A stretch of 64,000 nt of DNA, from contig JAFQLS010000002.1 of the NCBI GenBank assembly GCA_017396555.1, positions 1-64,000 of the forward strand, read 5' to 3'. The notes below the pieces were generated by a model. The model had not been told where the DNA came from and ran no database searches. It saw only the letters and a list, made by a program, of their open reading frames with translations. The translations under genes were made by a program, and so were the position numbers. Origin of the DNA: Lachnospiraceae bacterium (GTDB taxonomy: Bacteria > Bacillota > Clostridia > Lachnospirales > Lachnospiraceae). Shown in pieces: positions 1 through 63,866 of this stretch. Position 1 is the first letter of the stretch; every line of letters starts with the position of its first letter.

Positions 1-76
1 CAAAAGTAAGCGAAGCACTTTTTGTTACAAGATTTTCTGCCTTTTTTACAAGCATTTTTTCAATAGTTCTCTTCAT
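1..76 (-). CDS. truncated small ORF (5' end only), possible signalling peptide precursor
   Basis: Twenty-five codons are visible before the window edge, starting MKRTIEKMLV and ending at ..TKSASLTF. The ATG at 76 has a good ribosome site (AAAGGAGA, about 8 bases upstream), and a promoter with a LytTR-like repeat lies just upstream. The visible part is a basic, amphipathic helix-like stretch. Such a start is seen in AgrD-type autoinducer precursors, but the diagnostic core and C-terminus are outside the window, so this identity is speculation. It could equally be the start of an ordinary gene. Confidence 0.55.
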   Translation of the reverse strand, partial: MKRTIEKMLVKKAENLVTKSASLTF

Positions 77-133
77 AAAGTTTTTCTCCTTTCGTATATT
101 TAATAAATTACGCGCCAATTCATTATAAATTCA

Positions 134-161
134 ATTATATGTAAACTTTATCTCAAATCAA
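134..161 (-). promoter_or_regulatory. sigma-A-type promoter for the truncated ORF
   Basis: Reading the minus strand, TTGATT (156-161) and TATAAT (134-139) are separated by 16 bases. The ATG at 76 lies about 50 bases downstream. The direct-repeat operator at 171-207 ends 9 bases upstream of the -35 box, so the promoter is probably activated from there. Confidence 0.6.
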
Positions 162-170
162 TACTTCCAG

Positions 171-207
171 CCCCAACGACACTTTTCAGACCCCCAACGA
201 CACTTTT
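171..207 (-). promoter_or_regulatory. LytTR-type direct repeat operator (21-bp period)
   Basis: The 16-base unit CCCCAACGACACTTTT (plus strand) occurs at 171-186 and again exactly at 192-207, a 21-bp period or two helical turns. LytTR regulators such as AgrA, VirR and ComE bind paired direct repeats of about 9 bp spaced this way. On the minus strand each unit contains GTCGTTGGG, which partly matches the LytTR consensus around the GTT core. The pair lies immediately upstream of the -35 box of the minus-strand promoter, and a LytTR regulator is encoded at 7076-7834. Confidence 0.6.
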
Positions 208-211
208 TTGT

Positions 212-237
212 ATAAAAAGAGTTTGTAAGCAAACTCT
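212..237 (-). terminator. intrinsic terminator of the ABC/lipoprotein operon
   Basis: AGAGTTTG (218-225) pairs with CAAACTCT (230-237) across the 4-base loop TAAG. On the minus strand the hairpin is followed by TTTTTATA. It lies about 170 bases after the last gene of the operon. A weaker hairpin (GGTGCT/AGCACC, 255-281) sits between it and the gene. Confidence 0.6.
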
Positions 238-409
238 CAGACTACAAATAAAGCGGTGCTAAGATACAAAGTCCAAGCACCACTTTTCTTTGTTTATTTA
301 AATTACTCATTCCAATTGTATAACGAATAAATTCGCATATCTCCATATGTAATAATTTTGTCATTAATAACATAAATTTTATTTATATTCCCCTCTGAAT
401 CATACGCAA
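238..409 (-). other. intergenic stretch with a gene-tail-like remnant
   Basis: No intact gene is visible. On the minus strand an open frame without a start runs from inside the permease 3' end to a stop at 303-305. It reads as protein-like sequence (..LIAYDSEGNINKIYVINDK.., ending ..YSLYNWNE). It may be the decayed tail of a lost gene. A GGTGCT/AGCACC hairpin lies at 255-281. Confidence 0.35.
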
Positions 410-1444
410 TCAGTATATATATCTTTTTATCAAATAATAACCACTTCCCAAAAGAACACTTCCAAAAACCAAATAAATAAAAACACTCATATACATTATT
501 TGAAATCCGAATATTCTTTTTGCCGAACTCAATAAAGGATATGCTTCTAGTCCTTTTGAAATAATCAATATATTATCTGTTATTAACACCGGAATAAACA
601 CAATACCTAAAGATGTCATAAACATTACAATGTATTTATGTACACAAATTGCAACAACACTAAAAATTATACCTACAATTATTCCAAAAAAAGTTCTATA
701 AATAATTGTCAAAAGTATATATTCTAAAATTGTTACATTTAAAGTTGTATTTTTCATACACATCAGGCTACTAATATTAGCATTTATATCACCAAGATTC
801 ATTAACAATATTTTTACACCAAACTCTCCAATATAAAATACAACGCTTAAAGTAATCGAACATATGCACACACACATCATTCTATTAAAACACAAAATAT
901 TCTTTCCATTTTTCGATGAACGAATCATACTTATTGTATTAGAATAATAATCTTCACAAAAAAAGAATGAAACAATTAATATAAGACAAATCAATAACGG
1001 TATATTTACACTCATATTTTCAATATAATCGTTAACATCAATATCATAAAAATATGATGGCATATTTTTACATTGAGAATAATACTGCGTCTTTTCTACA
1101 ACATATTCTATTGTTTTGATTCTACTTTTTGCCATAGATATGTCTGATGAAATTTCTTTATATTCATTTACAGATAAAATCTTATCCTTATATTGTTGTA
1201 AATAGCTACCTTCTTTTGCCAACAAATCTTGCATTTCTGCATATTCATTCATAACTCGTATATACTTATCTTCGTTGTATTCACCCTGCAGACTCTCCAT
1301 ATAAAATTCATATACTTTGGAATTAAAGCCTTCATACATTACTGTTGAATTTCTAGTTGCAAGAAAAATATTAATTCCAAACATTACCACGATTATAATG
1401 ATTATTTTTTTATTAGAAAACAATTTTATAAATTCATATCTCAT
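410..1444 (-). CDS. ABC transporter permease (ABC-2-like), last gene of peptide/lipoprotein operon
   Basis: The 344-residue protein has an N-terminal membrane segment (about residues 13-30). A soluble, probably extracytoplasmic region of about 110 residues follows, then five or six hydrophobic segments between about residues 148 and 340. This is the layout of ABC-2-type permeases in which the first helix and the rest of the membrane domain flank an outside loop. Its ATG overlaps the ATPase stop codon (TAATG), so translation is probably coupled. With the ATPase at 1444-2151 and the sister permease at 2151-3281 it should form a heteromeric transporter. The substrate is unknown. LanFEG-type immunity exporters have a similar gene set, but no sequence signature here proves that. 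Confidence 0.75.
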   Translation of the reverse strand: MRYEFIKLFSNKKIIIIIVVMFGINIFLATRNSTVMYEGFNSKVYEFYMESLQGEYNEDKYIRVMNEYAEMQDLLAKEGSYLQQYKDKILSVNEYKEISSDISMAKSRIKTIEYVVEKTQYYSQCKNMPSYFYDIDVNDYIENMSVNIPLLICLILIVSFFFCEDYYSNTISMIRSSKNGKNILCFNRMMCVCICSITLSVVFYIGEFGVKILLMNLGDINANISSLMCMKNTTLNVTILEYILLTIIYRTFFGIIVGIIFSVVAICVHKYIVMFMTSLGIVFIPVLITDNILIISKGLEAYPLLSSAKRIFGFQIMYMSVFIYLVFGSVLLGSGYYLIKRYIY

Positions 1445-2151
1445 TACTCACATCCCTCAAAATACTTCATATACATTTCTTCAATAGTGGTATCTTTTAG
1501 AATATTCTCTTTAGAATCAATTTTAACAACATTTCCTTCTTTTAGAAAAATCAAACAATCAGCAATTTCATCCACATCAGATACAATATGTGTAGACAAT
1601 ATAATAATCTTTTCTTTTCCTAACTCTGCAATTATCTTTCTAAAATTAATTCGTTCCTTAGGATCAAGCCCTACTGTCGGCTCATCTAAAACTAAAATCT
1701 CAGGATTTGCTACCATTGCTATAGCAATGCCAAGACGTTGCTTCATTCCTCCTGAAAATGTTTTGACCTTTTGCTTTGCATTCTGTTGTAAATTAACAAG
1801 CTGTAACACTTCATTAATTCGATTAGAATATTGCGATTTTTCCACTCCCCTTAAATTTGCAAAATATTCTAAAGTGGTATATGCCGTAAAGTTATCATAA
1901 TAACCCACATGTTGTGGAAGATAACCTATGTGTATTCTATATTCACCCTTTAATTTATGAATATCAGTTCCGTTATACAATATTTCTCCTCTTGTTGGAT
2001 TTAGAACATCCGCAATAATATTCATAAGAGTTGATTTACCTGCACCATTAGGTCCAAGTAACCCATACACTCCTTTTTCAAATTTCAAACTAAAATTATG
2101 AAGTACTTCTTTATTCTTGTAAGATTTACACACATCTATTAATTCTAACAT
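1444..2151 (-). CDS. ABC transporter ATP-binding protein
   Basis: This 235-residue nucleotide-binding protein energises the two flanking permeases. Visible motifs are Walker A (GPNGAGKST, about residues 34-42), the Q-loop region (GYLPQHVGYY), the signature FSGGMKQRLG (about 133), Walker B ILVLDEPTVGLDP (about 154) and the H-loop STHIVSD. The class resembles the CcmA/NatA/BcrA-like exporters that pair with ABC-2 permeases. Start and stop codons overlap those of the neighbouring genes (TAATG on both sides). Confidence 0.92.
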   Translation of the reverse strand: MLELIDVCKSYKNKEVLHNFSLKFEKGVYGLLGPNGAGKSTLMNIIADVLNPTRGEILYNGTDIHKLKGEYRIHIGYLPQHVGYYDNFTAYTTLEYFANLRGVEKSQYSNRINEVLQLVNLQQNAKQKVKTFSGGMKQRLGIAIAMVANPEILVLDEPTVGLDPKERINFRKIIAELGKEKIIILSTHIVSDVDEIADCLIFLKEGNVVKIDSKENILKDTTIEEMYMKYFEGCE

Positions 2152-3281
2152 TACGCACCTTTCCTTCGATAAATTCTATATCCTAATACTGCTGCAATCA
2201 CTATTACCATAATATTTATACAAACATTTACATATAACATTTCCACAGGTTGTCCTAAAATATTAAGCGATTCATATTTCTTTAAAAACACACCATTATC
2301 ATTCAAAAGTCCAAACACACTGTAATTTTTTAATTTGCAATATATTTCATACTTTTGTTCAATAACACTTAACCCATCGATAGTATAATATTCATAATAT
2401 CCATATAAAAGCAATCCTCCTACCAGTACAATACAATTTATGATTATCGGGAAAATGCTTCTCTTGAAGAAAATTGTTACAAATATACAAATAATTCCAA
2501 TTGTCATATATCCTATCCCTCTAAGTATGGTCAGAATAATTACTAATTGTAAAAGATTTATATTACCAGGTGCATATCTATACATTTCAACACTTTGTAT
2601 GGGTAATAACCAATTTTGCATATCTCCTAATCCAAAAGTTAATATGCAGACACATATACTAGTAATTACAGATAACATAAATGAAAATATTGCAATACAT
2701 GCAATCTTTCTGGTATATGTGATCAATCTGCCTCCATAAGAAGAAAATATCATCGGATATATTTTAGCGGTATGTTCAATTATAAATATAACGGATACCA
2801 TAACAATTATGATTATCACATTAAAAATATCTATATTACTTAACACCGAAAAGATATTCGTAACATTTTTTATCTTAGTAGTATCACATATTTTCAAAAC
2901 AAGTGTATCACTGAATTTTCCTTCAATTTCTGCATTTACTTTTGCTATATAAGAATCATTACTATTCTTCAGACGTTTTGCATTACTTAATACATTATTT
3001 CTGTATTCCAATACTTCCTTATAATTTCCTGCCTGACTATAACAATCTAAATACCCAAAGAACAAAAAGTCTTCCTCTGTAATTTTTTCCATTTGTTCGC
3101 TTAATAATTTGTATTTTTCTTCTGTGTATTCTCCATAATATTTATCATCAACTCTCTGATATTCATTTGATAAATCAAATCCATATATCAAATAGGAATA
3201 ATGTATGATGTACGCAATCAAAACTATCAGACCAATGCAAATAACTTTGTTTGAAAATATTTTTTTGAACTCAAATCGCAT
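2151..3281 (-). CDS. ABC transporter permease
   Basis: A 376-residue membrane protein starts MRFEFKKIFSNK. I chose this ATG (3281) because it follows the upstream gene's stop by two bases and has a GGTGGTG ribosome site; an in-frame start 24 bases upstream would lie inside that gene. One N-terminal helix (about residues 12-30), a long soluble loop and about six C-terminal helices match the other permease (410-1444) in layout and in the starting motif (both read MRYEF/MRFEF then FSNK). The two are probably diverged paralogues forming a heterodimer. Confidence 0.75.
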   Translation of the reverse strand: MRFEFKKIFSNKVICIGLIVLIAYIIHYSYLIYGFDLSNEYQRVDDKYYGEYTEEKYKLLSEQMEKITEEDFLFFGYLDCYSQAGNYKEVLEYRNNVLSNAKRLKNSNDSYIAKVNAEIEGKFSDTLVLKICDTTKIKNVTNIFSVLSNIDIFNVIIIIVMVSVIFIIEHTAKIYPMIFSSYGGRLITYTRKIACIAIFSFMLSVITSICVCILTFGLGDMQNWLLPIQSVEMYRYAPGNINLLQLVIILTILRGIGYMTIGIICIFVTIFFKRSIFPIIINCIVLVGGLLLYGYYEYYTIDGLSVIEQKYEIYCKLKNYSVFGLLNDNGVFLKKYESLNILGQPVEMLYVNVCINIMVIVIAAVLGYRIYRRKGA

Positions 3282-3283
3282 TA

Positions 3284-4333
3284 TTAAACACCACCCTGCT
3301 CCCACACTATTTCTTTATAATCTGAGCCATCCTCCTTCATCATCGCAATACCATTTTCATATGTGCAATATATCATATCTCTTATTTTTATGAAGCTATC
3401 ACTACAAACCATATTAGTATATTCTGTATAATCTTTAATTAAATTTCCGTTAATATCCATGATTCTCTTATTTTTATTTTGACCACCTTCTGCATATATA
3501 TATCCATCATAAATCGAAAAAAACGCTACCTTTTCAGATATTTTACATTTTTCTTTATCTTTTAATGAATATCTGTACAAATCTTCAAATTCATCCGAAT
3601 AGAATATATAATCTTTATATGCCCCTCCAAGAAAGCAATTGTTTTCTAATTCTATAACCTCTGACTCACCTGTCTTTATATTCACATTAACTAATTGATA
3701 CAAATCATTTATATAGTAATATTTGTCTTCATACAGAGTCCCCCATGGAAACTTTCCTACATCATCATACATGCATATCACTTCAAAATTCTTGTCTAAA
3801 ATATATGCATGCCTATGCCCCTCCACCTTAAGATAATCCTCGTTTATTACTCTTACATAATATATCTCCGTACTATCATCTATTTTTTTCCCCTCATCCA
3901 TTTCCTCTGGAACAGGATTATCAAATACAATATCATTATTTTGACAATCTTTAATAAAACCACTGTAAATAATCGACGATTGACTAATACTTGATTCATT
4001 ATAAAATCTATATAGCTTATTATTGAATATAAAATATTCCCCTGCATTTACTGCTGCTTTACATTCCTGCGTATCATGAAGACATGTAGCTATCATACAA
4101 TTAACATTCAACTCATTATTCTTATCTAATCTTAGAAGAGCTTCATGTTTAAATGTAATGTATATATTTTCATCATCATATAATACATTCCTTCCATTTA
4201 CACGTTCACAATACTGTATGTCACCTGTCCCTCCAAAGTAATTTACCGAATCTTTCTTCTGCTCCACACATCCTGACAGCACACTTCCAACTGCAATAAC
4301 AATAACTAATACCTTGTATATATTTTTTGTCAT
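3284..4333 (-). CDS. lipoprotein, possible beta-propeller-like surface protein
   Basis: The 349-residue product starts with a lipoprotein signal peptide: a basic start, the hydrophobic run VLVIVIAVGSV, then the lipobox LSGC with Cys22. The mature part has repeated short motifs of the kind DKYYYINDLYQLVN, YIFYSDEFEDLYRY and YDGYIYAEGGQ. These resemble blades of the DUF5050-like propeller fold; that fold is inference. It overlaps the preceding lipoprotein gene by four bases (ATGA). Its place between a peptide gene and an ABC exporter suggests a surface receptor, substrate-binding or immunity role. Confidence 0.65.
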   Translation of the reverse strand: MTKNIYKVLVIVIAVGSVLSGCVEQKKDSVNYFGGTGDIQYCERVNGRNVLYDDENIYITFKHEALLRLDKNNELNVNCMIATCLHDTQECKAAVNAGEYFIFNNKLYRFYNESSISQSSIIYSGFIKDCQNNDIVFDNPVPEEMDEGKKIDDSTEIYYVRVINEDYLKVEGHRHAYILDKNFEVICMYDDVGKFPWGTLYEDKYYYINDLYQLVNVNIKTGESEVIELENNCFLGGAYKDYIFYSDEFEDLYRYSLKDKEKCKISEKVAFFSIYDGYIYAEGGQNKNKRIMDINGNLIKDYTEYTNMVCSDSFIKIRDMIYCTYENGIAMMKEDGSDYKEIVWEQGGV

Positions 4334-5304
4334 TTAACTACCTCCGTCTTTATTGATTTAAGACAATCCATGACTGTTCCTTCATTATCCATACCTATAG
4401 TTACTGCATAAAAAGTGTGACTTCCTTCTGTTAATGATGTCATATCAATTTTCATATGTACTTGCCCTTCCAAATTCTTTTCTACATATAATCTGTTACA
4501 ACCGTTAAATCCATTATATAACTTATCATCACAGAACAGCAAAGTTATATAATTCCCTTCCTGATAATCCCCCATATAATACAAATCTCCTTTTTCATTC
4601 TGTAATATATAATCCATAACAATACCGTTATATTCTGAAATCTCATGCAACTCTTTATTGTAAACATTTTTACAGGTATCAAAAAAATATCCCTCTATAC
4701 ACATAGAACTTGTATCATTATCATTTTCAGTGCTTTCTACATTAGATTTTATTTTACCTGAAAAGTTCATTACATGAATTTCATCTTCTTGATGAACGTA
4801 ACTACTAATCAAAGGGACACCTATAAACATAAAATTATATAATTTATCCTTTTCTAGGTTATCAGGTTTGAAGCTTATTAATTTTTGTATATCAGTTGCC
4901 TTCTCTATCTCGATTTTATGTAATACAGCCTTTTCTCCCTCATCATAGGAAAATGGAACAAATTCATTATCCACCATAAGCATAGTCAGCAATGTTACAT
5001 TCTTAACATCTTTAGATGCACCATTCATATACATCGTTAATCCAAATTCTAATTCTTCCCCTGAATATACAATTTCTTTTCCCAGTAATGAACCAAACTG
5101 TATTTCCCCTGTTGACTCATCTCTTCTAACCTTCTGAATATTTATTCCCATATCCATTCCTTGTGTTAACGAATCATCCTCAGTCTCAATATCACTTTGG
5201 TATTCCAAGTCTTCATTAGTACTTTTATTTTCAAACTCCCCCTTATTACTACAACTACATAATAGCGGAAAGATTATTAAAACAACATAGATTTTTTTCT
5301 TCAT
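4330..5304 (-). CDS. lipoprotein of unknown function
   Basis: A 324-residue exported lipoprotein with signal sequence KKKIYVVLIIFPLLCSC; lipobox-like LLCSC gives a lipidated Cys around residue 16-18. An acidic linker rich in Asp, Glu, Ser and Thr follows, then a soluble domain that I do not recognise. It is the second gene of a tightly packed operon. Its ATG overlaps the stop of the 23-codon ORF (ATGA), and its own stop overlaps the next lipoprotein start. Confidence 0.65.
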   Translation of the reverse strand: MKKKIYVVLIIFPLLCSCSNKGEFENKSTNEDLEYQSDIETEDDSLTQGMDMGINIQKVRRDESTGEIQFGSLLGKEIVYSGEELEFGLTMYMNGASKDVKNVTLLTMLMVDNEFVPFSYDEGEKAVLHKIEIEKATDIQKLISFKPDNLEKDKLYNFMFIGVPLISSYVHQEDEIHVMNFSGKIKSNVESTENDNDTSSMCIEGYFFDTCKNVYNKELHEISEYNGIVMDYILQNEKGDLYYMGDYQEGNYITLLFCDDKLYNGFNGCNRLYVEKNLEGQVHMKIDMTSLTEGSHTFYAVTIGMDNEGTVMDCLKSIKTEVVK

Positions 5305-5372
5305 ACTATCACTCCTAGACTTTTAAATAAGTTACAAAATTTTGATGCATTTTTAATTAAAAAGTTTTTCAT
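5301..5372 (-). CDS. 23-residue peptide ORF, first gene of the operon
   Basis: The ORF begins MKNFLIKNAS and ends ..SLGVIV. It has a near-consensus ribosome site (AAAGGAGG, 8 bases upstream of the ATG), much better than that of the following gene. Its stop codon overlaps the next ATG (ATGA). It is the first reading frame after a promoter with a LytTR-like operator. The peptide is basic, amphipathic and contains one Cys. It may be a secreted signal, a bacteriocin-like peptide or a leader peptide that couples translation of the lipoprotein gene. No family is recognised. Confidence 0.55.
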   Translation of the reverse strand: MKNFLIKNASKFCNLFKSLGVIV

Positions 5373-5398
5373 CTAAGGTACCTCCTTTGTTTTTTCTA

Positions 5399-5427
5399 AA
5401 ATTACAAAAAAATTAATTGATTTTCAA
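5399..5427 (-). promoter_or_regulatory. promoter of the peptide/lipoprotein/ABC operon
   Basis: On the minus strand TTGAAA (5422-5427) and TAATTT (5399-5404) are separated by 17 bases. The start codon of the 23-codon ORF lies about 27 bases after the -10 box. The operator repeat at 5434-5467 abuts the -35 box with a 6-base gap. Confidence 0.55.
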
Positions 5428-5433
5428 GGAGAT

Positions 5434-5467
5434 GTCCGTTTTTTGCAGAATTTTGTCCGTTTTTTGT
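5434..5467 (-). promoter_or_regulatory. LytTR-type direct repeat operator (21-bp period)
   Basis: TGTCCGTTTTTTG (plus strand) occurs at 5434-5446 and again at 5455-5467, a period of exactly 21 bp. The core TCCGTTTTT matches eight of nine positions of the LytTR consensus [TA][AC][CA]GTTN[AG][TG]. The geometry relative to the -35 box is like that of the site at 171-207, though the repeat reads in the opposite direction relative to its gene. The regulator is most likely the product of 7076-7834. Confidence 0.65.
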
Positions 5468-5694
5468 ATTTTTTATTATTTAATTAGTACTTGACATTTG
5501 AATTTTAATATGATTTTTTCTCCCCAGACCTTACACTAGTGTTACCCATAACAACTGAATCATATTATTATGTTGAGTTTGAACATATATAGAGTCATCA
5601 CTATGTACTGTTGATACATCAGGTGTTGATACACCTACAACTACCATTGTCTTTACTAATGACATTCGCGTTTTTTGCAAAGATTTTATTTTTT
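5468..5694. other. intergenic stretch without a supported gene
   Basis: A 44-codon open frame is present on the minus strand (5531-5665; hydrophobic start MSLVKTMVVVGVS). It has no ribosome site. It may be chance or a relic of a small secreted protein. Nothing else is recognised. Confidence 0.4.
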
Positions 5695-5739
5695 TACATA
5701 AAAAAATGTCACAATTATGATAAAAATCATAATTGTGAC
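5695..5739 (-). terminator. intrinsic terminator of the kinase gene
   Basis: A perfect 14-bp stem (5708-5721 with 5726-5739) encloses the loop AAAA. On the minus strand it is followed by ATTTTTTTATG, nine bases after the kinase stop codon. It separates the regulator/kinase unit from the target operon. Confidence 0.85.
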
Positions 5740-5747
5740 GAGCACTA

Positions 5748-7067
5748 CTATTTATTATTTATATTTAAAACCAATGTTGATGTAAATACATTTTCAACCA
5801 CATTCAAATCTAAAATACCATTATATTTTTCAGCTATGTGCAATACACTTTTTATACCAAATCCATGACTTTTTTTATCTTCTTTTGTAGTTAGGTACTT
5901 TTCATTTTCTACTTGTATATTTCCTGTACAACTATTAATACATTTAAAAACTAATATATTATTCTCATTTTGCATATATATCCTTAATTTTACATATTTA
6001 TTATCCTCGCATTCTGATGCTCCACGTATAGCATTATCTAAAAGATTACCAAACATTGCTATCAAATCAATTTCTTTAATTGATTCAACATTAACATTAG
6101 GTTCAACCAGCACATCATATTCAACACCTGCATTCCCTGCATCAATTGACTTTTCACTCAGTATTGTATTTAATATAGTGTCAAAGCTATATATTGACAT
6201 TATACTATTTTCTAATTCTTCTGTTAAATCCTTTAATACAGCATCAACTTTCTCATTTTCTCCGTCCTTAACTAAGGATTCAATAATTTTTATATAATTG
6301 CTAGTATCATGGATTAACTCCTGATGTTTTTCGTTTCTTTGTACTGTTTTATGTAGATATTCCAATTCTTCATTTTGTTTCATTATAAGCATTGAATTCT
6401 CAGCATTACTATTTACCTCTCTTGAATATCTTGCAAAAGCAAAATACACCAACATATTACTACCAAGCATTAGCAACATAAAAATTGTCATCAAAGCATG
6501 ATGTATACCTATCTTTTGAAAATCTATCCCCGAATAAAACACTGTAAGCATCATTCCTAATGTCGCAATAGGTAAACACATATATGTTAGTAAAGTCTTG
6601 TTATCCATTACTTTAATGGTTTTTGATGAAAACTGCTTAACTATAGTATATGCAATAAATGTTATTAATTTAACTGCAATAACATGCATAATATTATATG
6701 ACAAGTCAATAGCCTCACCACTCATCATTACTTTTGCTGACAATTGTGTAATAATCGCATATAAAAATTCACATCCAATATTAATTGAAAAAGCTACAAC
6801 AAAATAATAGATTCTTTCTCTTATCCCTAATTCAAACAAAATGTAAACATAACTCAACATAATAATAGGGAAACAAATTAAATTTAAAGATGAATTATTT
6901 GCTGAATTAACCAAAAATAGCAAAACTATTACTATTAAACTTATTAGTAATACTTTTTTACCTCTTATTTTGTTTCTTTTATTGGTAATGTTATTGTGTA
7001 AATCATAAATTAAAAACACCTCAACAACACATACAAATAACTTAACTAAAATTTTCACCCAATCCAT
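5748..7067 (-). CDS. AgrC/GHKL-family membrane sensor histidine kinase
   Basis: The 439-residue kinase has six or seven hydrophobic segments in the first ~215 residues, a coiled linker, then the catalytic part. Visible are the phospho-acceptor region ELIHDTSNY (His at about 253), N-box NLLDNAIRGA (about 340-350) and G-box HGFGIKSV (about 401-408). This domain order is that of peptide-sensing AgrC-like kinases of the HATPase_c_5 (GHKL) group. I place the start at ATG 7067, which has GAGG six bases upstream; an in-frame TTG lies four codons earlier. It follows the LytTR regulator gene by 8 bases and is probably its cognate partner. Confidence 0.88.
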   Translation of the reverse strand: MDWVKILVKLFVCVVEVFLIYDLHNNITNKRNKIRGKKVLLISLIVIVLLFLVNSANNSSLNLICFPIIMLSYVYILFELGIRERIYYFVVAFSINIGCEFLYAIITQLSAKVMMSGEAIDLSYNIMHVIAVKLITFIAYTIVKQFSSKTIKVMDNKTLLTYMCLPIATLGMMLTVFYSGIDFQKIGIHHALMTIFMLLMLGSNMLVYFAFARYSREVNSNAENSMLIMKQNEELEYLHKTVQRNEKHQELIHDTSNYIKIIESLVKDGENEKVDAVLKDLTEELENSIMSIYSFDTILNTILSEKSIDAGNAGVEYDVLVEPNVNVESIKEIDLIAMFGNLLDNAIRGASECEDNKYVKLRIYMQNENNILVFKCINSCTGNIQVENEKYLTTKEDKKSHGFGIKSVLHIAEKYNGILDLNVVENVFTSTLVLNINNK

Positions 7068-7075
7068 ACAATACC

Positions 7076-7834
7076 TCAATATTTTTTACCTACATAATCT
7101 GTAAACGCCTTCTTAAATGCTTTTATTTTGGAACGAGAAATAGGTAAAATTTCATCTTCTTTTCTTGCGTTTATTAAATACACATCATTATTAGTAATCT
7201 TTTTAATATACTGTAAATTAACTATATAACTACTATTAGCGTACTCAAAACCATAATTTTTTATTTTTTCATAAATTTCATCCAAATTTTTATCAGATAA
7301 GATTTTGCCATCTATATCCTTATTCTTATCTCGAAATTTTGAAATAGCGTGAATTTCCGAACCACGTTTTGAGGTTTCAATAAATAATATATCCTTAAGA
7401 TTTAATCTTATTTGATTATGATAATGATGTGCAAGCACCTCCGGAATTTTAACATTCTCAAACATTTTGTTAATAATATCATTAATTTCCTGAGACATCT
7501 TTTCATCCCTATATTCCTTATACAAATATCTATATGGCAATACTTTGATACTATTATCAGTTGGTTTTCTAACTCCAGAGCAAAAAGCTATAACTGAATT
7601 AGGATATTTCTCCCTTATAGATATGGCAACCCGTTCACCATCAATCCCGGGCAAATCCACATCAAGTATTACCATATCACAGCAAATATCTTTGTTACTT
7701 ATATAACGAATCAGACTTTCACCATTTGTAAATTCTTTAATATTAAAAGGGATATCACTCTCACAGATTAATATTTTACTTTTTAAATATTTTAGATATT
7801 CGATGTTATCATCACATATAAGTATGTTATACAT
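7076..7834 (-). CDS. LytTR-family response regulator (AgrA-like)
   Basis: The 252-residue protein has a receiver domain (residues 1 to about 125) with acidic pair D8/D9 and phospho-acceptor D58 in VILDVDLPGIDG. A LytTR DNA-binding domain (about 140-245) follows, with the typical IETSKRGSEI and ..NSSYIVNLQYIKKI segments. LytTR regulators bind paired direct repeats two helical turns apart. Exactly such repeats occur at 171-207 and 5434-5467, so these two promoters are its likely targets. The gene is first in a two-gene unit with the kinase. Confidence 0.92.
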   Translation of the reverse strand: MYNILICDDNIEYLKYLKSKILICESDIPFNIKEFTNGESLIRYISNKDICCDMVILDVDLPGIDGERVAISIREKYPNSVIAFCSGVRKPTDNSIKVLPYRYLYKEYRDEKMSQEINDIINKMFENVKIPEVLAHHYHNQIRLNLKDILFIETSKRGSEIHAISKFRDKNKDIDGKILSDKNLDEIYEKIKNYGFEYANSSYIVNLQYIKKITNNDVYLINARKEDEILPISRSKIKAFKKAFTDYVGKKY

Positions 7835-7901: not shown

Positions 7902-7955
7902 ACAATTCGACAAATCGTTATTATATATATTATTCCTCGTTATAAGAATTTTCCC

Positions 7956-11605: not shown

Positions 11606-12484
11606 TTATATTTGCTTAGCCCTTTCAATTGTATTTTTAATAGGTTCATTTCTCCATAACTTCAGAAATACTACCAATAATCTTATTACACGAATTCTTC
11701 CCTTAAAGGTAGTTTCTCCTTCAAATACAACATTTTCAAAATCCGGGTAAATCTGAAATTTCTTCGTAAACCCGTAAAACATATATATTATTCCGAGCAA
11801 CTTGCCTGTATTAGACGGATCCTCAAACCCAAACTTCATATACAGTTCAAGCTTTGTCGGTAAAATATACTTAATTAACTTAATTAATTCTTCCTTGCCC
11901 ACCTTCCACGCAATCTTAGTATCCTCTTCTCTAAGAAAAGCTAGAAAATTATTTTTTCTTTCATTAATCTTCTTAAGTTTATCACAAAATGCTCTGATTT
12001 TAAATCTAATTTTTCTAATAAATTCAAAAGGACTCTTCCATTTCTTCTTTTTATAAGTAATAGGTTCCTGTACGGTAACCTCTTTCTTTCCAGTGTCCTT
12101 TTTAGGCTCTGTAAGAGTTATTGTACGAGGTGTATCATCCTCAGGCTCTTTAAACGTATCTGCTTGCTTTTCCTGTTGTTTTTCCTGCTGTATTTTCTTA
12201 TTTTTGACCTTTTTTTTCTTATTTTTATTCCACGGATTAAATTTTATACCAAATAGCTTATACTTTACATCCGTTTCACCATTGTCATACGTAATATGAA
12301 TCGAAATAATGTGAAGCAACCACGATACGATAATCTTACCATGCTTTTCATCGTACCACTGACCTTTTCCTTTGTATCTAACAGGCACAAATAATATACA
12401 GATTAAGGCTAAAAGCAATAAGCCTAATATTAACAGTAATACTATTCCAATTATTTTTAAAATCAACAGTATAATATGTAGCAT
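11606..12484 (-). CDS. DUF2953 family membrane-anchored protein
   Basis: A 292-residue protein with one N-terminal membrane segment (about residues 5-32, rich in Leu and Ile), then VPVRYKGKG, typical of DUF2953. A lysine-rich low-complexity linker (KNKKKKVKNKKIQQEKQ, about 90-110) precedes a basic region and a C-terminal domain with EDPSNTGKLLG. It lies next to the GerW-like gene. The function is unknown; the cognate Bacillus gene ytfI is also beside ytfJ. Confidence 0.75.
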   Translation of the reverse strand: MLHIILLILKIIGIVLLLILGLLLLALICILFVPVRYKGKGQWYDEKHGKIIVSWLLHIISIHITYDNGETDVKYKLFGIKFNPWNKNKKKKVKNKKIQQEKQQEKQADTFKEPEDDTPRTITLTEPKKDTGKKEVTVQEPITYKKKKWKSPFEFIRKIRFKIRAFCDKLKKINERKNNFLAFLREEDTKIAWKVGKEELIKLIKYILPTKLELYMKFGFEDPSNTGKLLGIIYMFYGFTKKFQIYPDFENVVFEGETTFKGRIRVIRLLVVFLKLWRNEPIKNTIERAKQI

Positions 12485-44847: not shown

Positions 44848-44850
44848 CTA

Positions 44851-45193
44851 TGGAGCTGAGGGGAATCGAACCCCTGTCCGAAATCTCTTCCATTAAGGCA
44901 TCTCCCACTACAGTCAGTGTATTAACATTCCCTCACTGATACGCCCACTAACAGGCTTATCAGATTAGTAGCTTCATAATTCTTCCGCTATCTCAAAGCT
45001 TTGACAGCGAAGTGCCTCGCAAAGTCGATGCCGAACTCTTAAGCAGCGAGTGACTTAAGGTCGACAGCTGCCATTAGGCAGCGTAAGCAAAATTATCGTT
45101 TGCGTTTATATTTAATTTCGGTTTACTAAGACGGTCCCGACCCGCCAGTGGCTTCCCTAACTTCTAAAACCCCGTCGAAACCAGTACAACCCC
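44851..45193 (-). ncRNA. ssrA: transfer-messenger RNA
   Basis: The 343-nt RNA rescues stalled ribosomes with SmpB. The 5' end GGGGTTGTACTGGTTTCGAC and the 3' end with GGTTCGATTCC (T-loop) and CAGCTCCA form the tRNA-like domain; the acceptor arms pair over seven bases. The reading frame at 45074-45103 encodes tag ANDNFAYAA with resume codon GCA and stop TAA. The gene has its own promoter and terminator. smpB lies about 2.2 kb upstream, separated by two other genes. Confidence 0.97.
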
Positions 45194-62435: not shown

Positions 62436-63866
62436 TTAAGAATAATACTTATGCTCAAAATCATGAACCGGCAAAGGCTTTGAATAGTAATATCCCTGAA
62501 TCTTATCGCATTCCGTTTCAGCTAAAAATTCCAACTGTTCTCTATTCTCAACACCTTCTGTTATAACTGTCATATTAAGTTCCTTTGCCATCTTAATAAT
62601 ATTCTTAATAACAATTCGTCCTCTATCATCAACTGAAGTACCCTGAATAAAGTCTTTATCAATTTTAAGTACATCAACCGGTAAAATATTCAACATATTG
62701 AGCGACGAATATCCCGAACCAAAATCATCCATTGCAATCTTAAATCCTAATTGATGTAATTTATCAATAATATCTATAACATTTTCCTTATCTTCCACGA
62801 ATGTACTTTCTGTTATTTCAAGTTCTATAAGATGTGGCGGAATGTTATAGGCAGTTACGATATCCGCTATCTCATTAACTAAATCACCATTAGTAAAATG
62901 AATAGGAGATACATTTACAGATATCGTAATTGGCTCTTTTTCTTCGTCTATCCATTTTCTTAACAATTTACAAATTTCTTCCCAAATATAAGAATCCAAC
63001 TTAAGAATAAATTTATTTCTCTCAAATAAATCAATAAATTCGCCGGGGCTGACAACCTGATTATTACTAGTAGGATCATTCCATCTTACCAAAGCTTCAG
63101 CCGAAGCAATTTTACCTGTTCTAGTTGAATACTGTGGCTGTAAATAAGGTACAAATTCACCTGCTTCAAGAGCTGCATGCATACTATTTTCAATGCTTTT
63201 CTCTCTAATAAGCTTGTCTCTTATTTTTTTATCAAAAAATGCGTAATAATAAACCGAACTTCCTTTAATTGACTGTTTTGCAAGATTAGCTCTATCAGAC
63301 ATAATATCAATCTGAATCTCATCTTCAATCTTATATATACCAAAATAAGCATTAAGCTTAAATGTTACAGAACAATTCTTAACAGCCTTATTAAATTCGG
63401 TAACTCTCTCAATAAGCTGTTCATCAGATTCATATTCAACAAAAAGACAAAAAACATCCGCATATACTCTTGAAGCAATTTCTCCTGAATTAAGCAATGC
63501 TTTGATATCAGTTGCAATCGCTCTCAAAATTCTATTACCGCCTGATGTTCCATATACGTCATTTACAGTTTTGAATTTATCTATATCAAAATGAATCAAC
63601 GCATATTTCTTGCCTTGATTCTTAGTCAATTTAACCTTTAATTCACTTTTAAAACGTTCCCAGTTGATTAATCCTGTTATCCCGTCAATATCTGTAGCCA
63701 TATGAATATATGCTTTGTATTTTCTATATGAAAACAATATTACAGATGCCGTAAACAGTAATAAAACAATAACTATTCTTAAGATAAAGTACGGATGCTC
63801 AACAAGAAAAAATCCCAAATCCGTCTTTAAATCTGGTAAAACATTTGGAATATTATTACTAGACAT
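62436..63866 (-). CDS. GGDEF-EAL protein, likely c-di-GMP phosphodiesterase
   Basis: The 476-residue protein starts at ATG 63866 (GGAGG nine bases upstream; the earlier in-frame ATG touches the GGAGG). It has one membrane helix (about 28-48). A GGDEF domain (about 65-215) has its signature reduced to SRVYADVF, so cyclase activity is unlikely. The EAL domain (about 225-475) keeps the catalytic residues: AEALVRWND, SVNVSPIHF, EITES, MDDFGSGYSSL, KIDKDF, EGVENREQ and QGYYYSKPL. It should hydrolyse c-di-GMP. It pairs with the PilZ receptor (32061) and with the adjacent Cache protein. Confidence 0.9.
   Translation of the reverse strand: MSSNNIPNVLPDLKTDLGFFLVEHPYFILRIVIVLLLFTASVILFSYRKYKAYIHMATDIDGITGLINWERFKSELKVKLTKNQGKKYALIHFDIDKFKTVNDVYGTSGGNRILRAIATDIKALLNSGEIASRVYADVFCLFVEYESDEQLIERVTEFNKAVKNCSVTFKLNAYFGIYKIEDEIQIDIMSDRANLAKQSIKGSSVYYYAFFDKKIRDKLIREKSIENSMHAALEAGEFVPYLQPQYSTRTGKIASAEALVRWNDPTSNNQVVSPGEFIDLFERNKFILKLDSYIWEEICKLLRKWIDEEKEPITISVNVSPIHFTNGDLVNEIADIVTAYNIPPHLIELEITESTFVEDKENVIDIIDKLHQLGFKIAMDDFGSGYSSLNMLNILPVDVLKIDKDFIQGTSVDDRGRIVIKNIIKMAKELNMTVITEGVENREQLEFLAETECDKIQGYYYSKPLPVHDFEHKYYS

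What the first reader, a model, noticed from the sequence alone, without database searches (positions are those of the whole stretch)
1..7834. Possible undescribed peptide-signalling and export system
A GHKL kinase and LytTR regulator are followed by a terminator and a regulated operon: 23-codon peptide, two lipoproteins, permease, ATPase, permease, all overlapping or within 2 bases. Agr systems usually have agrB and agrD beside the kinase; none is visible here. The lipoproteins and heteromeric exporter could bind, export or give immunity to the peptide.
Basis: inference. Interest (0 to 1): 0.8.

Follow-up and report, generated by a model that had tools for sequence, protein, structure and literature searches.

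The report
Rewired agr switch before an exporter
A sensor and regulator gene pair related to the agr quorum-sensing system stands here without an agrB gene beside it, and an agr-type DNA site likely lets it switch on a tiny peptide gene plus a lipoprotein and exporter operon; a sister copy of that operon in the same genome lies beside what is likely an undescribed family of micropeptide signals.

Summary
In detail: LytTR regulator, GHKL kinase, terminator, then a tight operon of a 23-codon ORF, two lipoproteins, permease, ATPase, permease. The regulator pair is AgrA/AgrC-like: 8 of the 11 best kinase relatives have an AgrD beside them, and AgrB was confirmed at 7 of 7 loci tested. In three of the eight, the agrD promoter carries the same double site (GGACA-type cores 21 bp apart, -35-like hexamer five bases on) that the window has before the 23-codon ORF; one other site in the genome, before a protease gene, is near-identical. 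Best reading: a rewired agr switch, probably signalled in trans, whose operator now drives an exporter operon. The 23-mer is almost certainly translated but is not AgrD-like, and none of 7 other copies of the module has it; these are distant copies, so its role is open. No AgrB lies nearby; an AgrD-like leader is cut off by the contig end (76..2). The module's paralogue led to something fresher: 12-18 aa, mostly Trp-rich micro-ORFs beside a GHKL kinase and Spo0A-type regulator, at 13 of 16 loci by a strict rule against 0.06 expected.

The parts
7906..7914 (-). Spo0A-type box TTTGTCGAA upstream of the regulator gene
   Evidence: only exact match in the window, but 0.49 expected by chance; box name recalled
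7076..7834 (-). AgrA-type response regulator (Response_reg + LytTR)
   Evidence: Pfam; groups with L099 (96/93) in a 12-row clade (99/97) of which 8 rows are AgrD-linked
5748..7079 (-). AgrC-type GHKL kinase, 7 hydrophobic segments, HD and NLLDNA motifs
   Evidence: Pfam PF14501; relatives; hydropathy; tree
5708..5739 (-). intrinsic terminator after the kinase
   Evidence: 14-bp stem, 4-base loop, T run
5661..5678 (-). single degenerate copy of the site A repeat
   Evidence: 72% to the reference copy; pattern gave 3 matches where 1.02 expected by chance
5433..5466 (-). site A: predicted double AgrA/LytTR-type operator, 21-bp period
   Evidence: one near-identical copy in the genome; same layout before agrD in three sibling loci
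5399..5427 (-). promoter TTGAAA-17-TAATTT just after site A
   Evidence: sequence read directly; TTGAAA at the same distance at C57 and L103
5380..5388 (-). Shine-Dalgarno AAAGGAGGT of the 23-codon ORF
   Evidence: 9-base match
5301..5372 (-). 23-aa ORF MKNFLIKNASKFCNLFKSLGVIV; stop overlaps the start of lipoprotein A
   Evidence: no family hit
4330..5304 (-). lipoprotein A
   Evidence: Cys18 invariant in all 10 aligned members; signal peptide and lipobox read by eye
3284..4333 (-). lipoprotein B with invariant Cys79, Cys84, His86, Cys91
   Evidence: alignment of 22; lipobox LSGC read by eye
2151..3281 (-). ABC permease A
   Evidence: 41% to the C27 copy, 4 members aligned
1444..2151 (-). ABC ATPase
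   Evidence: PF00005; below the cut-off of each of the 25 NCBIfam families shown of 208
410..1444 (-). ABC permease B
   Evidence: alignment with module relatives
171..201 (-). site B: second LytTR-type double repeat GTCGTTGGGG, 21-bp period
   Evidence: 4 matches at 3 places in the genome, 0 in the reversed control
134..161 (-). promoter-like TTGATT-16-TATAAT after site B
2..76 (-). AgrD-like leader ORF MKRTIEKMLVKKAENLVTKSASLTF..., cut by the contig end
   Evidence: anchored AgrD score p 0.0034, HMM 6 of 1000 shuffles as good; no curated family hit

Best explanation
This is an agr-type AgrA/AgrC pair with no agrB beside it, and a predicted AgrA-type operator stands in front of a 23-codon ORF and a lipoprotein-ABC exporter operon that the pair likely activates when a cyclic agr-type peptide, probably made in trans, binds the kinase. 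Likely steps: an autoinducing peptide (from the AgrD-like gene cut off at the contig end, from the C38 agr locus or from neighbouring cells) activates the kinase; the phosphorylated regulator binds site A; the operon and a trypsin-like protease gene on contig C57 are switched on together. Shown: gene identities, clade membership, operator architecture and its second genomic copy. Inferred: which regulator binds site A, the ligand, activation, and what the exporter moves. The 23-mer is most likely a translated first gene of the operon (cargo or leader) rather than the kinase's signal.
For: Kinase relatives: 299 of 397 family genomes (own included) have a match at E 1e-10. Of the 11 best loci fetched (L099-L109; 33-45% identity, E 5e-101 to 6e-71) 8 have an AgrD ORF within the fetched stretch, all 8 over the TIGR04223 cut-off; AgrB over the Pfam cut-off in 7 of 7 candidates tested. 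Over all 29 fetched loci L099-L127, 13 have an AgrD-type ORF by pattern and eye. The window pair groups with L099 in both trees (kinase 100/99, regulator 96/93); the regulator's 12-row clade with 8 AgrD-linked rows has 99/97, the kinase's 12-row fork only 85/95. A scan for G[GC]ACA-N16-G[GC]ACA (at least one GGACA) over the window, 6 own-genome loci, 29 kinase loci and 3 longer stretches found the window site, C57, the spacers before agrD in L100, L101 and L103, and one match in L122; 20 Markov copies of the window gave none for the GGACA form. In the first five a -35-like hexamer follows the second core after five bases: TTGAAA in window, C57 and L103, weaker in L100 and L101 (hexamers read by eye). 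No such site lies in the stretches around three other GHKL kinases of the genome (C38, C23, C42). Genome-wide (up to 3 mismatches), site A has two copies, 0 in the reversed control. Site A is also present at all 3 places with site B: 5 kb away in the window, adjacent at C57, as a half-site at C30. L056 shows the same module after a full agr locus.
Against: No binding or expression data. The double-site pattern was drawn from the sites themselves. Site A and the sibling sites match the recalled LytTR half-site consensus in only 5-7 of 9 positions. 5 of the 8 AgrD-linked siblings show no GGACA double site (L104 has a different 21-bp repeat; only 45 bases were read before L107's AgrD). Kinase scores fall off gradually (next loci 5e-67, 5e-62), so the set of 11 is a cut, not a natural tier; L110, without AgrD, falls inside the kinase clade. 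AgrB is missing near the window; the only AgrB in the 85%-complete assembly is at C38. The nearest relative, L099, is a pair without agrBD, so the pair may have left peptide sensing altogether. The AgrD-like leader has Phe where the Cys would align and is incomplete.
Confidence: 0.62

Rival explanations
1. The 23-mer is itself the autoinducer: leaderless, exported by the ABC transporter, sensed by the adjacent kinase without AgrB.
For: It sits where most siblings have agrD, right behind the AgrA-type site; 9-base Shine-Dalgarno, the only such micro-ORF in 64 kb. The same genome's C27 copy of the module has a 17-aa micro-ORF beside its kinase; the two align with 6 identities in 14 columns, permutation p 0.0086 local and 0.017 global.
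Against: No counterpart at 7 of 7 other module loci; not AgrD-like (permutation p 0.11-0.16; 50 of 1000 shuffles score as high); AT-rich, GC 0.21 against 0.25-0.31 in the operon's other genes; not amphipathic beyond shuffles (p 0.156); siblings of this kinase use AgrB/AgrD. The alignment was chosen after the fact.
Confidence: 0.17
2. The 23-codon ORF is only a translational leader: its stop overlaps the lipoprotein A start (ATGA), so it feeds ribosomes to lipoprotein A; or it is what is left of the secreted-protein gene that accompanies this operon in relatives. (Compatible with the best explanation, which leaves cargo or leader open.)
For: ATGA overlap; AT-rich composition; 6 of 7 other module loci carry a secreted-protein gene in or ahead of the lipoprotein genes, which the window and L053 lack.
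Against: Lipoprotein A has its own AGGAG, and relatives manage without such a leader.
Confidence: 0.4
3. The operon is an antimicrobial-peptide sensing and resistance system (lantibiotic-immunity type ABC transporter with accessory lipoproteins), and the kinase senses a foreign peptide.
For: The second-best NCBIfam hit of the ATPase is the lantibiotic protection subunit TIGR03740.
Against: 192.8 bits against a cut-off of 309.75; the pair groups with AgrD-linked pairs; most module relatives come with a secreted protein of their own.
Confidence: 0.15

Closest known systems
agr quorum-sensing systems (AgrBDCA)
   Same: AgrC-type GHKL kinase and AgrA-type LytTR regulator grouping with pairs that adjoin agrD and agrB; double site at the agrD promoter position as in three siblings
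   Different: no agrB on either side; the site stands before a 23-codon ORF and a lipoprotein-ABC operon; agrD-like ORF only at the contig end
LytTR regulators with 21-22-bp direct repeats (ComE, PlnC, AgrA, VirR type; recalled)
   Same: two repeats 21 bp apart just before the -35
   Different: site A has a GGACA core instead of the recalled GTT core (6 and 7 of 9 consensus positions; site B, with GTT, 7 and 7)
ABC-2 type peptide exporters and immunity transporters (LanFEG, PmtABCD, lactococcin 972 type)
   Same: small ATPase with dissimilar permeases
   Different: ATPase below the curated cut-offs of TIGR03740, NF047565, NF047568 and TIGR03608; two lipoproteins without a Pfam or NCBIfam match over a cut-off
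Paralogous module at C27 with GHKL kinase, Spo0A_C regulator and 17-aa micro-ORF
   Same: same five transporter and lipoprotein genes, multi-pass GHKL kinase nearby, strong-Shine-Dalgarno micro-ORF
   Different: Spo0A_C instead of LytTR output, secreted-protein gene present, micro-ORF on the opposite strand in the kinase-regulator gap

Membership tests
agr quorum-sensing system | AgrC-type multi-pass GHKL kinase | tested here: met
   PF14501, 7 hydrophobic segments, grouping with AgrD-linked kinases (fork support 85/95)
agr quorum-sensing system | AgrA-type LytTR response regulator | tested here: met
   (clade support 99/97)
agr quorum-sensing system | AgrB protease in the locus | tested here: not met
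   one AgrB in the 85%-complete assembly, at C38; none beside the window pair
agr quorum-sensing system | AgrD precursor in the locus | tested here: inconclusive
   23-mer is not AgrD-like; ORF 76..2 has an AgrD-like leader but is cut by the contig end
agr quorum-sensing system | double operator at the agrD promoter position | tested here: met
   same layout as L100, L101, L103, 3 of 8 AgrD-linked siblings; binding not tested
agr quorum-sensing system | response to a cyclic peptide | not testable with these tools
   needs a reporter assay
AgrD family cyclic lactone autoinducer (TIGR04223), for the 23-mer | match over the curated cut-off | tested here: not met
   no hit up to E 10
Lantibiotic protection ABC transporter (TIGR03740) | ATPase over the curated cut-off | tested here: not met
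   192.8 against 309.75 bits
PSM exporter Pmt (NF047565, NF047568) | ATPases over the curated cut-off | tested here: not met
   131.4 against 350 and 126.8 against 375 bits

The most novel reading that the evidence does not exclude
AgrC-like kinases have escaped the AgrB/AgrD route in this family: leaderless micropeptides, translated from strong ribosome sites and needing no AgrB, are the signals. The main branch pairs a multi-pass GHKL kinase and a Spo0A_C regulator with a 12-18 aa, mostly Trp-rich amphipathic micropeptide encoded beside the kinase, usually on the opposite strand; the window's 23-mer, standing in the place of agrD behind an AgrA-type operator, is a parallel case in the LytTR branch, and both branches have captured the same lipoprotein-exporter module.
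Probability: 0.3. Interest if true: 0.87.

Novelty: new variant of a known kind. Interest (0 to 1): 0.6.

Why it matters
It points to an agr-type switch detached from its own signal genes and wired, through its operator, to an exporter-lipoprotein module that recurs beside other regulators. If the micropeptide genes beside the Spo0A-type pairs are signals, Lachnospiraceae use a peptide language that gene finders miss because the genes are under 20 codons; the strong ribosome sites make it directly testable with synthetic peptides.

Tried and rejected
23-mer as a short AgrD: shares A-x3-C spacing by eye, but anchored score and HMM do not separate it from shuffles. ORF 5531-5680 as a decayed agrD: 1763 of 2000 shuffles score as high. 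23-mer as kin of the C27 17-mer: p about 0.01, chosen after the fact, left as a hint. Structured RNA: no Rfam match above gathering in the window except tmRNA; one sub-threshold snoRNA-type match in the first 12 kb, taken as chance. Lipoprotein folds: no solved-structure match better than E 0.04; structure prediction could not be run. Relatives in viral contigs: none. Continuation of the contig by overlap: no near-identical stretch. More module loci: lipoprotein B at E 1e-20 in only 4 of 395 genomes, own included. Lipoprotein B-like genes in L050 (6.9-kb contig, stop inside) and L052 (no other module gene in 18 kb) were not counted as module loci. Spo0A box 7906-7914: 0.49 expected by chance in the window, so not used as evidence. 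My notebook entry speaks of a clear kinase subfamily with a gap after L109; the table does not bear out the gap. Literature: (all ten searches) showed no paper on this locus or on micropeptides beside Spo0A_C/GHKL pairs; I saw listings and beginnings of abstracts, and passages of PMC8895600. Subscription papers and preprints are not held, so absence is weak evidence.
Full report
Observation. The operon is tight: the 23-codon ORF ends in the ATGA that starts lipoprotein A, and the rest overlap by 1-4 bases or lie 2 bases apart. Direct repeats CAAAAAACGGACA, 21 bp apart (5433-5466, site A), precede TTGAAA-17-TAATTT and the ORF; the double repeat has no match in 100 shuffles of the window. The ORF carries AAAGGAGGT. 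A scan for 10-60 aa ORFs with a 7-base Shine-Dalgarno match outside large ORFs found this one alone in 64 kb. Under a stricter rule (ATG, 10-24 aa) 3 of 107 control gaps had a hit: the window's 23-mer, the same stretch fetched again as L098, and the C27 17-mer. I take it as a translated gene.

What the regulators are. The kinase has 7 hydrophobic segments and a GHKL domain. In 397 family genomes, own included, 299 had a match (at most 4 candidates scored per genome). I took the 11 best fetched loci of other genomes, L099-L109; scores fall off gradually after them. Of these 11, 8 have an AgrD in the fetched locus (not L099, L102, L109); all 8 pass the TIGR04223 cut-off, and 7 of 7 AgrB candidates tested, L109's included, pass Pfam's. 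Over L099-L127, 13 of 29 loci have an AgrD-type ORF. In L101 and L103 the order is agrB-agrA-agrC-site-agrD. In trees of 27 kinases and 22 regulators the window pair groups with L099 (100/99; 96/93); the wider regulator clade has 99/97, the wider kinase fork 85/95. L099 is a pair with no agrBD in its 7.7-kb contig by eye, and its match to the window kinase ends at residue 402 of 443. L102 also lacks agrD in the fetched stretch; in its longer contig (L128) the pair is followed by a lipoprotein and ABC-type genes, read by eye.

What the operator is. A scan for G[GC]ACA-N16-G[GC]ACA, a pattern drawn from the sites themselves, across the window, six own-genome loci, L099-L127 and L128-L130 gave the window site, C57, the spacers before agrD in L100, L101 and L103, and one match in L122. 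In the first five a -35-like hexamer follows after five bases (TTGAAA in three). The other 5 of the 8 AgrD-linked siblings show no such site; L104 has another 21-bp repeat, and before L107's AgrD only 45 bases were read. In the own genome site A has one further copy, one mismatch in 34, at C57:4596-4629, before a gene for a trypsin-like protease (Trypsin_2 21.4 bits, below its 27.6 cut-off), which has an in-frame TAA between its first 86 codons and the rest. A second repeat type, site B (GTCGTTGGGG, 21-bp period), occurs at three places: 171-201 in the window, C57 next to site A, and C30 next to half of site A. At 171-201 it precedes a promoter-like sequence and an ORF (76..2) that runs off the contig; its leader scores as AgrD-like (p 0.0034; 6 of 1000 shuffles as good in the HMM), yet curated models do not see it and Phe stands where Cys would align. 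No other contig shares its start. That A and B occur together suggests one regulon; which regulator binds each is not shown.

What the operon is. Seven other copies of the five-gene module were found: C27 in the same genome (L012), L013, L014 (same contig as L055), L051, L053, L054, L056. Lipoprotein B is the most recognisable member (22 aligned, invariant Cys79, Cys84, His86, Cys91). Six of seven carry a secreted-protein gene of about 130-160 aa, in L051 only weakly similar (E 2e-5), that often ends ..TYG....YN; L053 and the window do not. Neighbouring regulators vary: GHKL + Spo0A_C (L012), full agr (L056), a divergent LytTR gene (L014), a gene I read by eye as PadR-like (L013), none directly beside the module in L051, L053, L054 by eye. 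Gene order varies too, and L051 has three copies of lipoprotein A. None of the seven has a counterpart of the 23-codon ORF directly before its lipoproteins; L054 and L056 have TTG-start ORFs of 25 and 28 aa with strong ribosome-site matches ahead of the secreted-protein gene, unlike the 23-mer by eye. So the module is the conserved unit and the regulators are plugged in. No close relative of the window locus was available, so loss or gain of the 23-mer cannot be dated.

The paralogue's surprise. At C27, between the kinase and a Spo0A_C regulator, a 17-codon ORF (MNMLSKMWNAFLNLYWY) lies on the opposite strand behind a 10-bp repeat array. Relatives of that kinase occur in 18 of 397 genomes, own included, at 19 loci (E 1e-10). 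Regulators of 10 of 10 further loci tested are Spo0A_C; four other peptide-bearing loci (L083, L087, L088, L092) were not tested. Beside the kinase at 16 loci (L091, cut inside the kinase, and the tandem kinases L095 and L097 left out), 13 have an ATG ORF of 12-18 aa with a 7-base or better Shine-Dalgarno match, against 0.06 expected from Markov shuffles; without C27 itself, 12 of 15. The rule was fixed after the first look. In L089 the ORF lies before the kinase, its regulator being on the far side; elsewhere it lies in the regulator-kinase gap. It is on the strand opposite the kinase in all but L094. Two more are seen with weaker sites (L087; L088, by eye); L096 has none. In 14 of these peptides Trp makes 28 of 223 residues, 13 having at least one, and helical amphipathicity exceeds shuffles overall (single p 0.003-0.45; combined p 1e-8). 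The window's 23-mer has no Trp and is not amphipathic beyond chance, so I do not file it there.

Mechanism. I favour: cyclic peptide in trans, AgrC-type kinase, AgrA-type regulator at site A, exporter-lipoprotein operon and protease switched on. The 23-mer would be cargo or leader. Signal function for it stays possible because it holds agrD's place. All steps beyond sequence are inferred.

Known or new. The pair is agr-derived; the arrangement is a variant I did not see described in ten full-text searches (listed in Tried and rejected). The micropeptide family is the more novel lead and is reported as such.

Noticed in passing
L012:12664-12717 (own genome C27, about 62663-62716) and L080-L094: Family of 12-18 aa, mostly Trp-rich, often amphipathic micro-ORFs with very strong ribosome sites beside a GHKL kinase and a Spo0A_C regulator: 13 of 16 loci by strict rule, 0.06 expected.
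   Followed up: partly
L059 (C57):4596-4629, 4253-3072: Second copy of site A before a trypsin-like protease gene that has an in-frame TAA after 86 codons in this assembly.
   Followed up: partly
L067:7757-7820 (C30 about 11757-11820): Three site B repeats and half of site A in a spacer between two genes read on the other strand, joined to a coding-like fragment: looks like the relic of a regulon member.
   Followed up: no
L012:11781-11826: Two exact Spo0A-type boxes facing each other in the gap between the Spo0A_C regulator and the secreted-protein gene of the C27 module; the only exact ones in 16 kb.
   Followed up: no
L056:544-3635: A complete agr locus (kinase, AgrD, AgrB, LytTR regulator) before a copy of the exporter module in a Lachnospiraceae MAG.
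   Followed up: yes
L128:4240-13198: Sibling AgrA/AgrC pair with no agrD found beside it, followed by a lipoprotein and several ABC-type permease/ATPase genes (types read by eye): a possible second case of an agr pair next to an exporter operon.
   Followed up: partly
L108:4168-4248: 26-codon ORF with a 9-base Shine-Dalgarno match downstream of agrB in a sibling agr locus.
   Followed up: no
44848-45193: tmRNA with tag ANDNFAYAA.
   Followed up: no
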